From Paenibacillus dendritiformis (GTDB lineage Bacteria > Bacillota > Bacilli > Paenibacillales > Paenibacillaceae): 64,000 nt of DNA. The notes below the pieces were generated by a model that had not been told where the DNA came from, made no database searches, and was given only the letters and a program-made list of their open reading frames with translations. This document shows, one piece after another, positions 11,392 to 13,949 of the stretch. The stretch is from positions 806,001 through 870,000 of the forward strand of contig NZ_AP025344.1 in the NCBI RefSeq assembly GCF_021654795.1, read 5' to 3'. Made by a program: the position numbers and the translations under genes. Every line of letters starts with the position of its first letter. Position 1 is the first letter of the stretch.

Positions 11392-11571
11392 TTATTTTTT
11401 TCTTTCTCTGTCCTGCATGGATTGGATAGCTCTGACTAGCTGAAGCAATGAATTATCCAATCTCTCCAGCTTATCACCTATAGTTTGCAGAACATAGCGA
11501 ATTAGAATGAAACAGAGTGTGACCGGGAATCCTACATTTGTCACAAGTGAAATCACATCGGTTACTTCCAT
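11392..11571 (-). CDS. yvrJ: YvrJ-family small membrane protein
   Basis: A 59-residue protein on the minus strand, read by hand. It begins MEVTDVISLVTNVGFPVTL, has one hydrophobic segment (about residues 8-30) and an amphipathic tail rich in Lys, Arg, Glu and Gln, the layout of the YvrJ family. The start ATG at 11571 follows a very strong ribosome site (GGGAGGGAGGAGGGA). In B. subtilis yvrJ belongs to the SigO-RsoA regulon and neighbours those genes. Here it lies divergent to a sigO-like and rsoA-like pair with 143 bases between, which strongly supports the identification. The biochemical role of YvrJ is not established. Confidence 0.82.
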   Translation of the reverse strand: MEVTDVISLVTNVGFPVTLCFILIRYVLQTIGDKLERLDNSLLQLVRAIQSMQDRERKK

Positions 11572-11627
11572 CCCTCCTCCCTCCCTTCAGCTCTTTTTAT
11601 AAGTAGGGAAAAAGTAATTGCTAATTC

Positions 11628-11652
11628 ACAACCAAATATGTTAAATGGTTGT
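11628..11652. promoter_or_regulatory. Inverted repeat between yvrJ and the sigO-like gene
   Basis: ACAACCA at 11628-11634 and TGGTTGT at 11646-11652, exact inverted arms with an 11-base spacer, in the 143-base divergent promoter region. It could be part of a SigO-type promoter read in both directions or a regulator site. No transcript data are available. Confidence 0.45.
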
Positions 11653-11714
11653 AATTTAAAGCTTATAAACTCCCTATATATTAGAGTCATAGGAAAACAA
11701 AAAGGGGGGGCAGT

Positions 11715-12053
11715 GTGGATAAGCAAGTATCTATTATTGAACGCTATAGGAATAAAGTGTACCGGAGTGGTTGGCGATTGCAGTACCATGTCAAAAAAAT
11801 GCGCACGAGTGAATGTGCCCTTTTTGAAAAAAGTCGAGAAAATACTTGTTTTTCCAATGAACTTGAGACTCGCATATTGGTACAGCAGCTTCTTCATTCT
11901 TTGCCGCTACAGGGAAGAAGGGTCCTTTATAAACTTTACATTCTGAATATGACAGAAGCCGAGGTGGCGAAGCAACTTAAAATGAGCCAACAGGCGGTGA
12001 ATAAATGGAAACGAAAAATGCTTCAGCAACTATCTCAGAGCGTGAATTTCTAA
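11715..12053 (+). CDS. sigO: SigO-like sigma factor subunit (region 4)
   Basis: A 112-residue protein with a sigma-70 region 4-type helix-turn-helix at about residues 60-108 (LPLQGRRVLYKLYILNMTEA, then VAKQLKMSQQAVNKWKRKML) and no recognisable region 2. In B. subtilis SigO carries region 4 and needs the small partner RsoA for region 2 and core binding; the next gene here looks like that partner. GTG 11715 is the only start before an in-frame stop and follows a GGGGGGG ribosome site. The gene is shorter than I recall for B. subtilis SigO, so the N-terminal part may be reduced. The unrelated-looking N-terminus is Lys/Arg rich. Confidence 0.72.
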   Translation: MDKQVSIIERYRNKVYRSGWRLQYHVKKMRTSECALFEKSRENTCFSNELETRILVQQLLHSLPLQGRRVLYKLYILNMTEAEVAKQLKMSQQAVNKWKRKMLQQLSQSVNF

Positions 12054-12229
12054 CCCTCTTACAGGCAGCGAAGCAAAAAGATACTGAGGCGATGCTGCAA
12101 ATAATTGAAATTTTCAAAGAAGACATCTTGAAGATCAGCACCTATATTAAATTACCGACCGAAGATGTAGTATCATATATCGTCCTCGAATTACTAGAGG
12201 CGATAGTAGAGGATGAATTCTCTAAATAG
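12005..12229 (+). CDS. rsoA: RsoA-like co-sigma factor (region 2)
   Basis: A 74-residue protein resembling RsoA/HTH_16, the small subunit that supplies sigma region 2 functions. The segment FLTLLQAAKQKDTEAMLQII followed by acidic, aliphatic helices fits the start of region 2 in sigma-70-like proteins. It overlaps the sigO-like gene by 49 bases in another frame; ATG 12005 has GGCGGTG five bases upstream, so translation is probably coupled to the upstream gene, giving balanced subunits. The overlap, size, order and the neighbouring yvrJ all match the SigO-RsoA arrangement. Target genes are not known; no oxalate decarboxylase gene (a B. subtilis target) is in this window. Confidence 0.7.
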   Translation: METKNASATISEREFLTLLQAAKQKDTEAMLQIIEIFKEDILKISTYIKLPTEDVVSYIVLELLEAIVEDEFSK

Positions 12230-12950: not shown

Positions 12951-13178
12951 AGAGCACCTTTCTTTACCATAATAGACGAAAGATACTGTGTATTTGTTTC
13001 TCTAAAATTACATAAATAGTTATATACCAATGAGGGAAAATTAAACCATAAAAGAATCATTTCAAAAATTTATAATCTAAGGTTGTAGTTGCTGCCGCAA
13101 AACTCCCTTATATATGAGAAGCAAAATTGGCCAACTTCTCTGCGCTGATCAGCTAACAAAAATAAGGAGTGATTTTTA

Positions 13179-13949
13179 TGGTGGCAGCATTTCAAAAGAA
13201 CTGTCAATGGTACATCGACAGAGATATACGCAATTACTTGGCATGTGGATGATCTGAAAGTGGGTTCACTGGGCAGCTCTAGTCTCTATAATTCTAGCTT
13301 GCAAGGTGTAAACGGAACCTTTTATAGTGGGAGCCAAATTGTAGGGGATTGCAATTCAAAATGGGCAGGCTGTTCGTACACATCGCGATTATCCAAATAA
13401 CTGCTTGAAAAATGGAACTAGTACCATTAATCGAAATAGGGGGACTATGTATCGAACCACAGGTGGTACAGTGAATGTAAAGCGCACAGTTCTTGCCAAA
13501 GACTTGACTGGACAACTCAGTAACCTAAAGTGGGCAATTGGTGGCATTAGTATGCATCTCGATCAAACATTGACGAAAGCAGCATACGATAAATTGATTG
13601 CTGATGAGGCGGAGGGTGTAGGTGGTGTTTCAGACAAACGGCCACGTACAATGATGGGCTACAATTCAGAAACAAAGAATATAGTTCTGGCTATTGCCGT
13701 AGATGTTCTCGAACACGGAAAAACCGGTAAGGGTATGGACGTACCATTATGTCCGGCTTAGGCTGTACAATGGCCATTCATCTCGATGGAGGAAGCTCAA
13801 CTTCTATTCGTATAGAGGATCAAGAAGATTTCACACGGAATATTGTCCGTCATAAAGTGACCGATAATGCACAGCTTACGGCCGTATATTTCGACACAAA
13901 ATATGGAATGCAAAGATGGCCTAGTGAGTGGATAGATATTTGGCCATAA
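13179..13949 (+). pseudogene. Phosphodiester glycosidase (NAGPA domain) pseudogene
   Basis: Pieces of one protein occur in successive frames: TEIYAITWHVDDLKVGSLGS and GVNGTFYSG at about 13210-13330, then RDYPNNCLKNGTSTINRNRG to GMDV (about 13388-13742), then TIMSGLGCTMAIHLDGGSST to the end. The last motif is the signature of the NAGPA family, which removes a GlcNAc or related cap from phosphodiesters in wall polymers or glycans. At least two frameshifts (about 13385 and 13740) break the reading frame. A start ATG at 13179 with AAGGAG upstream belongs to yet another frame. Not expected to be functional unless the breaks are sequencing errors. Confidence 0.75.

What the first reader, a model, noticed from the sequence alone, without database searches (positions are those of the whole stretch)
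11392..12229. A SigO/RsoA-type split sigma factor with divergent yvrJ
Seen: two overlapping small genes, one with region 4 only (112 codons), one region-2-like (74 codons, 49-base overlap), divergent from a 59-codon YvrJ-family gene with a very strong ribosome site, across a 143-base region holding an exact ACAACCA/TGGTTGT inverted repeat. Known: in B. subtilis SigO needs RsoA, and yvrJ is in their regulon. Inference: this is a functional two-subunit sigma system in a Paenibacillus-type genome, with an unknown regulon and a region-4 subunit shorter than the Bacillus one. No oxalate decarboxylase is nearby, so the regulon may be quite different.
Basis: partly seen in the sequence, partly recalled or inferred. 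Interest (0 to 1): 0.78.

Follow-up and report, generated by a model that had tools for sequence, protein, structure and literature searches.

The report
Split sigma factor with holin-linked regulon
Two small overlapping genes in a Paenibacillus genome encode the two halves of one transcription-initiation (sigma) factor, and the promoter they appear to share marks a small set of genes for holin-like membrane peptides and for enzyme- or toxin-like proteins without export signals, which suggests that this rare type of split sigma factor may control an unusual protein-release system.

Summary
The 112-codon gene carries sigma region 4 only. The 74-codon gene overlaps it by 49 nt, scores above cut-off for Pfam HTH_16, and its model matches only sigma region 2 among solved folds. 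The divergent 59-codon gene is a YvrJ homologue with a 4-residue insertion. In named relatives, 77 of 80 loci keep two separate genes, 44 with the same 49-nt overlap, and one species has both halves fused in one frame.

The inverted repeat is best read as two back-to-back -35 elements: GGTTGT-N18-(T/A/C)CCNTA occurs on both strands. A matrix trained on the window's genus finds the site upstream of 60 of 72 independent loci, against 16 of 2434 background windows. The same site precedes a small regulon: YvrJ-like peptides, a Phage_holin_4_1 holin, and leaderless DUF4127, DUF3238, phosphodiester-glycosidase, YkuD and new 153-residue proteins, usually paired with a convergent membrane-protein gene. 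The genome has three such sigma pairs: YvrJ-linked, holin-linked, and in a contractile-tail cluster.

Best reading: a SigO-RsoA-type two-subunit sigma factor with a different regulon. Its coupling to holin-type release, as in TcdR/TcdE, is a new, untested inference. YvrJ could instead be a membrane regulator.

The parts
11715..12053 (+). SigO-like subunit: sigma region 4 only, 112 aa, GTG start behind AAAAGGGGGGG
   Evidence: PF08281 E 7.4e-7, above cut-off; 44-46% identical to best relatives; profile match to Bacillus SigO region 4, E 4.9e-7
12005..12229 (+). RsoA-like subunit: sigma region 2 only, 74 aa, 49-nt overlap with the previous gene
   Evidence: PF12645 27 bits, above cut-off; AlphaFold2 model pLDDT 86; all VIA-align hits with Z of 4 or more are sigma region 2; profile match to Bacillus RsoA E 2.5e-4, probability 43%
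11392..11571 (-). YvrJ-family small membrane peptide, 59 aa, with a 4-residue insertion relative to canonical YvrJ
   Evidence: PF12841 partial, below cut-off; family profile hits canonical YvrJ at up to 9e-11; alignment; phrog_4898 'holin' E 0.004
11646..11679 (+). predicted promoter of the sigma operon: (T)GGTTGT at 11646-11652, 18-nt spacer, TCCCTATAT at 11671-11679
   Evidence: 31.6 bits
11601..11634 (-). predicted divergent promoter of the yvrJ-like gene: (T)GGTTGT at 11634-11628, 18-nt spacer, TCCCTACTT at 11609-11601
   Evidence: 26.5 bits
13081..13113 (+). third predicted promoter of the same type: GGTTGT, 18 nt, CCCTTATAT
   Evidence: 28.1 bits
13178..13949 (+). predicted target gene, broken by several frameshifts: phosphodiester-glycosidase (NAGPA) type, resembling the 240-aa protein behind the same promoter in Paenibacillus sp. 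Root52
   Evidence: three-frame reading; intact relative L148 matches PF09992; assignment of the broken copy is by eye

Best explanation
The locus encodes a two-subunit sigma factor of the SigO-RsoA type. The 74-aa subunit supplies sigma region 2 (binding to core polymerase and contact near -10) and the 112-aa subunit supplies region 4 (recognition of -35); only together do they start transcription. The holoenzyme would read GGTTGT-N18-(T/A/C)CCNTA promoters, which stand back to back in front of the sigma operon (autoregulation) and the yvrJ-like gene, and in front of a few other loci. The regulon combines a small holin-like membrane peptide (YvrJ-like, or a true Phage_holin_4_1 in a paralogous locus) with proteins lacking export signals that look like wall or polysaccharide enzymes and bacteriocin-like toxins with convergent membrane 'immunity' genes. 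Most likely role: switch on production and holin-aided release of these proteins, in the manner of TcdR/TcdE or UviA/UviB. Shown by computation: subunit anatomy, conservation, promoter, regulon membership. Inferred: assembly of the subunits, promoter activity, YvrJ as a release peptide, toxin and immunity functions. The confidence given is for the two-subunit sigma factor with this promoter; the export role alone is put at about 0.35.
For: Region 4 and region 2 assignments; conserved overlap; natural in-frame fusion of both halves in one genome; promoter matrix trained on the own genus finds 60/72 independent upstream regions against 16/2434 background windows, Fisher p 3e-93, loci not phylogenetically independent; target families behind the same motif; own-genome sites at the sigma/YvrJ pair, 891,950 (holin), 891,982 (second sigma pair), 5,936,618 (153-aa-type protein) and 1,075,730 (365-aa protein); Phage_holin_4_1 E 1.5e-34 at the position YvrJ takes in the window; canonical YvrJ matches phrog_4898 'holin' at 2e-6; nearly all targets lack a hydrophobic N-terminus; in Bacillus the sigO, yvrJ and oxdC genes share a promoter of the same layout, and OxdC is reported to accumulate in the cell wall and to be the main sigO target (PMC3542257).
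Against: No expression data. In 37 of 80 loci no YvrJ or holin gene was found within the fetched flanks, so the coupling is not universal. In three other Bacilli YvrJ sits inside the sigma operon between the two subunit genes, which also suits a regulator. 'Holin' for YvrJ is annotation-level evidence. The third sigma copy has no convincing copy of the motif nearby. One predicted window target is broken. The absence of export signals was judged by hydropathy only, and DUF3238 N-termini are borderline (about 2.1).
Confidence: 0.85

Rival explanations
1. The split sigma factor is real, but YvrJ is a membrane-bound regulator (sensor or anti-sigma-like partner) of the sigma subunits rather than a release peptide; the targets are secreted by other means or act inside the cell.
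For: In L216, L240 and L232 the order is sigma - yvrJ - rsoA with overlapping ends, as expected for proteins made in fixed ratio; YvrJ is a short membrane segment followed by a charged helix; 37/80 loci lack a YvrJ or holin nearby.
Against: A true holin replaces YvrJ at the divergent position in other loci of the genus; canonical YvrJ matches a phage holin family; literature held here describes yvrJ as a SigO target (PMC8103513).
Confidence: 0.3
2. The locus is a phage- or element-derived late-gene regulator pair (comparable to Xpf of PBSX or to small sigma-like genes of conjugative elements) left in the chromosome.
For: A paralogous pair lies between holin and amidase in a contractile-tail cluster; other copies lie on plasmids.
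Against: No match of either subunit in 50,697 phage records; the window copy has no phage or conjugation genes around it in the ORFs read; the gene pair and its promoters are conserved in dozens of chromosomal loci.
Confidence: 0.1
3. The inverted repeat is an operator for a separate repressor, and the shared GGTTGT sequence is its binding site rather than the -35 element of the split sigma factor.
For: An exact 7-bp inverted repeat is a typical repressor site (for the sequence; general knowledge for the inference); promoter function was not tested.
Against: At most sites, including sigma operons without a divergent motif and distant targets, the motif occurs once, oriented, and at a fixed 18-nt distance from a conserved TCCYTA box; Bacillus sigO, yvrJ and oxdC show the same layout with GTTKAC.
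Confidence: 0.06
4. The genes are decaying and the system is not functional in this genome.
For: One predicted target (13178-13949) carries several frameshifts.
Against: Both subunits, the yvrJ-like gene and its promoters are intact, and other predicted targets are intact.
Confidence: 0.06

Closest known systems
SigO-RsoA of Bacillus subtilis (YvrI-YvrHa), with yvrJ and oxdC-yvrL
   Same: Region 4 and region 2 on separate, overlapping genes; divergent yvrJ; sigma operon and yvrJ share one promoter type; small regulon
   Different: Region-4 subunit is about 80 residues shorter; overlap 49 nt instead of about 17 nt; promoter GGTTGT-N18-TCCYTATA instead of GTTKAC-N15/16-TTCAYTTA; no oxdC seen; several copies per genome; other targets
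TcdR/TcdE and UviA/UviB (group V sigma factor with holin, clostridia)
   Same: Autoregulated special sigma factor next to a holin-type gene and leaderless toxin-type targets; the holin here is of the Phage_holin_4_1 family
   Different: Two-subunit rather than single-chain sigma factor; different promoter; in the window a YvrJ peptide in place of the holin; targets are unrelated, putative proteins
Xpf of PBSX
   Same: One paralogue lies in a contractile-tail cluster beside holin and amidase
   Different: Split into two genes; window copy not phage-linked; no phage match
Pfam HTH_16 (PF12645) proteins
   Same: The 74-aa protein scores above the family cut-off
   Different: The model also rings on a SigW-like ECF sigma factor in Bacilli and the predicted fold is sigma region 2, so the name 'helix-turn-helix' misleads

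Membership tests
SigO-RsoA-type two-subunit sigma factor | one subunit with sigma region 4 and no region 2 | tested here: met
   PF08281 above cut-off, no region-2 match; profile match to Bacillus SigO region 4, E 4.9e-7
SigO-RsoA-type two-subunit sigma factor | second small subunit with sigma region 2, encoded next to and overlapping the first | tested here: met
   PF12645 above cut-off; model matches sigma region 2, Z up to 7.0 over up to 74 residues; overlap conserved
SigO-RsoA-type two-subunit sigma factor | sequence homology of the small subunit to Bacillus RsoA | tested here: inconclusive
   profile-profile E 2.5e-4 but probability 43%
SigO-RsoA-type two-subunit sigma factor | divergent yvrJ sharing the promoter type | tested here: met
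SigO-RsoA-type two-subunit sigma factor | oxdC in the regulon | tested here: inconclusive
   no oxdC among the ORFs read beside the locus or behind the motif sites inspected; the genome was not searched for oxdC itself
SigO-RsoA-type two-subunit sigma factor | both subunits required for transcription | not testable with these tools
   needs in vitro transcription or gene deletion
YvrJ family (PF12841) | score above the family cut-off | tested here: not met
   16.5 bits against 29.5; so it is called a YvrJ homologue, not a curated member of the Pfam family
YvrJ family (PF12841) | N-[VL]-G-F-P motif, one membrane segment, charged amphipathic tail | tested here: met
   alignment with canonical members; 4-residue insertion; family profile hits canonical YvrJ at up to 9e-11
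holin-coupled export module (TcdE-like) | holin-family protein in the same regulon | tested here: met
   Phage_holin_4_1 E 1.5e-34 behind the same promoter type at the second locus of the genome; for the window's own YvrJ only phrog_4898 E 0.004
holin-coupled export module (TcdE-like) | release of leaderless cargo depends on the holin | not testable with these tools
   needs deletion and fractionation

The most novel reading that the evidence does not exclude
Across Bacilli, SigO-RsoA-type split sigma factors are the switch of a holin-like (YvrJ or Phage_holin_4_1) export system for leaderless wall-active enzymes and bacteriocin-like toxins; the cell-wall location of B. subtilis OxdC would be one instance.
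Probability: 0.35. Interest if true: 0.82.

Novelty: new variant of a known kind. Interest (0 to 1): 0.64.

Why it matters
SigO-RsoA has been studied essentially in one organism, with oxdC as its main target and yvrJ of unknown function. Here the same kind of factor is found in dozens of Paenibacillus species, with a readable promoter, a predicted regulon and a link to holins. This makes two open questions directly testable: what the split sigma factor is for, and how leaderless proteins such as OxdC reach the wall. It also offers a set of divergent two-subunit sigma factors with different promoters, useful as AND gates, as was already done with the B. subtilis pair (PMC10028694).

Tried and rejected
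Colicin-immunity protein as the nature of the 74-aa gene: the profile's best PDB sequence hits were Im9/Im7 at E 0.14 or weaker, but the model's TM-score to Im9 is 0.27 while all leading structural hits are sigma region 2; rejected. Calmodulin hits are chance. Phage origin: no matches of either subunit in phage records. A YvrJ-like peptide in the 37 loci without one: a scan for short membrane ORFs with a G-F/V/L/I-P-type motif gave only unconvincing ORFs. Genome-wide enrichment of the short motif by count alone: not above the reversed control, so only sites with high matrix score and gene context were used. Fold of the 153-aa protein: model pLDDT 84 in the best of five models but about 65-68 in the others, and no PDB match by Foldseek. 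The primary SigO-RsoA papers and the published SigO promoter were not held; the Bacillus promoter was read from the sequences here.

Full report
What is there. The 112-aa protein matches sigma region 4 (PF08281, 29.2 bits, cut-off 25.7) and nothing of region 2; the 74-aa protein matches PF12645/HTH_16 (27 bits, cut-off 22); the divergent 59-aa protein gives only a partial YvrJ match (16.5 bits, cut-off 29.5). The low YvrJ score has a plain cause: the Paenibacillus proteins carry four extra residues inside the membrane segment. A profile of the window-type family finds canonical YvrJ proteins at up to 9e-11.

The second subunit is sigma region 2. An AlphaFold2 model on 66 relatives (pLDDT 86) has 24 PDB entries at Z 4-7, all sigma factors, covering region 2; the next rows drop to Z 2.5. 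Z of 7 is modest for a small helical domain, but the list is uniform and agrees with the Pfam hit; that Pfam model also rings on a SigW-like ECF sigma factor in Bacilli. The profile match to Bacillus RsoA is weak (E 2.5e-4, probability 43%), and that to Bacillus SigO is limited to region 4 (E 4.9e-7).

Conservation. In the window's genus 12 of 19 genomes have each subunit, and the window's genome has three pairs. A scan of named genomes gave 80 loci, mostly Paenibacillus, with Cohnella, Fontibacillus, Alkalihalobacillus and Ruminiclostridium. A separate region-2 gene follows in 77, and one more has both halves fused. The overlap is 49 nt in 44 and longer by multiples of three in 30 more.

Promoter. 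The two arms of the inverted repeat are GGTTGT on either strand, and each is followed after exactly 18 nt by TCCCTA. The same oriented arrangement lies upstream of the relatives' sigma genes: 48 of 80 by a strict pattern, against 6 hits of the reversed pattern in 639 kb on both strands. A matrix built from 21 sites of the genus and applied to other species scores 12 bits or more upstream of 60 of 72 sigma genes and in 16 of 2434 background windows (Fisher p 3e-93; loci share ancestry, so this is not a count of independent events). In Bacillus, the sigO and yvrJ promoters read GTTTAC-N15/16-TTCAYTTA and the oxdC promoter GTTGAC-N16-TTCACTTA: same layout, diverged sequence. The repeat is therefore better read as two divergent -35 elements than as a repressor site.

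Regulon. Genes directly behind the motif in relatives fall into few families: DUF4127, DUF3238, NAGPA phosphodiester glycosidase, YkuD transpeptidase, YvrJ-like peptides, a 365-375-aa family without Pfam match, and a 146-163-aa family without Pfam match. The last has a glycine-rich hydrophobic centre and a conserved C-terminal domain, is usually followed by a convergent gene for a membrane protein, and occurs in arrays with extra copies of that partner (L048), a pattern typical of bacteriocin and immunity genes. Nearly all targets start without a signal-like hydrophobic stretch; DUF3238 proteins are borderline. In the window's genome the predicted sites are: window 11647+, 11633-, 13081+; 891,950- (Phage_holin_4_1); 891,982+ (second sigma pair); about 892,689+ (153-aa-type protein); 5,936,618+ (same family, distant locus); 1,075,730- (365-aa protein); weaker, about 884,210+ (363-aa protein). 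The target at 13178-13949 in the window is frameshifted.

The three copies. Copy A (window) faces a YvrJ-like peptide; copy B (892 kb) faces a true Phage_holin_4_1 holin across the same double promoter and is followed by a 153-aa-type gene and its convergent partner; copy C (5,325 kb) lies between holin and amidase at the end of a contractile-tail cluster with baseplate, hub and tail-fibre genes and has no convincing motif nearby. Other copies lie on plasmids.

Mechanism. Shown by computation: anatomy, conservation, shared promoter and its genes. Inferred: that the subunits assemble, that they read this promoter, and that YvrJ acts in release. For release speak the replacement of YvrJ by a real holin at the same position, the PHROG holin match of canonical YvrJ, the leaderless targets, and the published statement that B. 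subtilis OxdC, the main SigO target, accumulates in the cell wall (PMC3542257). Against it, three Bacilli have yvrJ between the sigma subunit genes in one operon, which fits a regulator, and 37 of 80 loci show neither YvrJ nor holin in the fetched flanks. I put the two-subunit sigma reading at about 0.85 and the export reading at about 0.35.

Comparison. It works like, and is best filed with, SigO-RsoA, as a variant with a shorter region-4 subunit, another promoter and another regulon. By logic it resembles TcdR/TcdE and UviA/UviB, but membership there is not claimed. Papers held here mention SigO-RsoA only in reviews, in B. subtilis expression studies and as a synthetic AND gate; none was found that describes this regulon or a function of YvrJ, but most subscription papers are not held.

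Noticed in passing
L216:1235-2456, L240:578-1892, L232:1208-1877: In other Bacilli the order is sigma region-4 gene, yvrJ, rsoA-like gene in one operon with overlapping ends; L232 also has two ORFs resembling the C-terminal domain of the 153-aa family and an amidase-like gene nearby.
   Followed up: partly
L040:9866-10387 (same as L213:3995-4516): Natural in-frame fusion, region 4 first and region 2 second, the reverse of a normal sigma factor.
   Followed up: partly
L048:10768-14946: Array of 153-aa-type genes, one truncated, with three convergent membrane-protein partners, like a bacteriocin locus with extra immunity genes.
   Followed up: partly
L039:8000-19900: Contractile-tail cluster with Phage_holin_4_1, a split sigma pair and an amidase carrying an S-layer-homology domain; similar holin/sigma arrangements in four more genomes of the genus.
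   Followed up: partly
window:9409-9858: Gene with an XRE-type helix-turn-helix start and an AbrB-like end about 1.5 kb from the locus (read by eye); an AbrB/SpoVT gene also precedes the split sigma pair on P. peoriae plasmid pPlas2 (L251).
   Followed up: no
window:12357-12950: Lipoprotein gene (197 aa) just downstream of the sigma operon on the other strand; weak DUF3804 match, not related to the putative immunity family.
   Followed up: no
L287:281-1378; L038:2274-3365; L192 gene behind 4646: A 363-375-aa family (SDNPE motif) without Pfam match, found behind the same promoter type in Paenibacillus and Alkalihalobacillus.
   Followed up: no
L098:2477 and L099:2356: Conserved motif-like site between an mgtC-type gene and an ABC transporter in two species; not clearly placed before a gene.
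   Followed up: no
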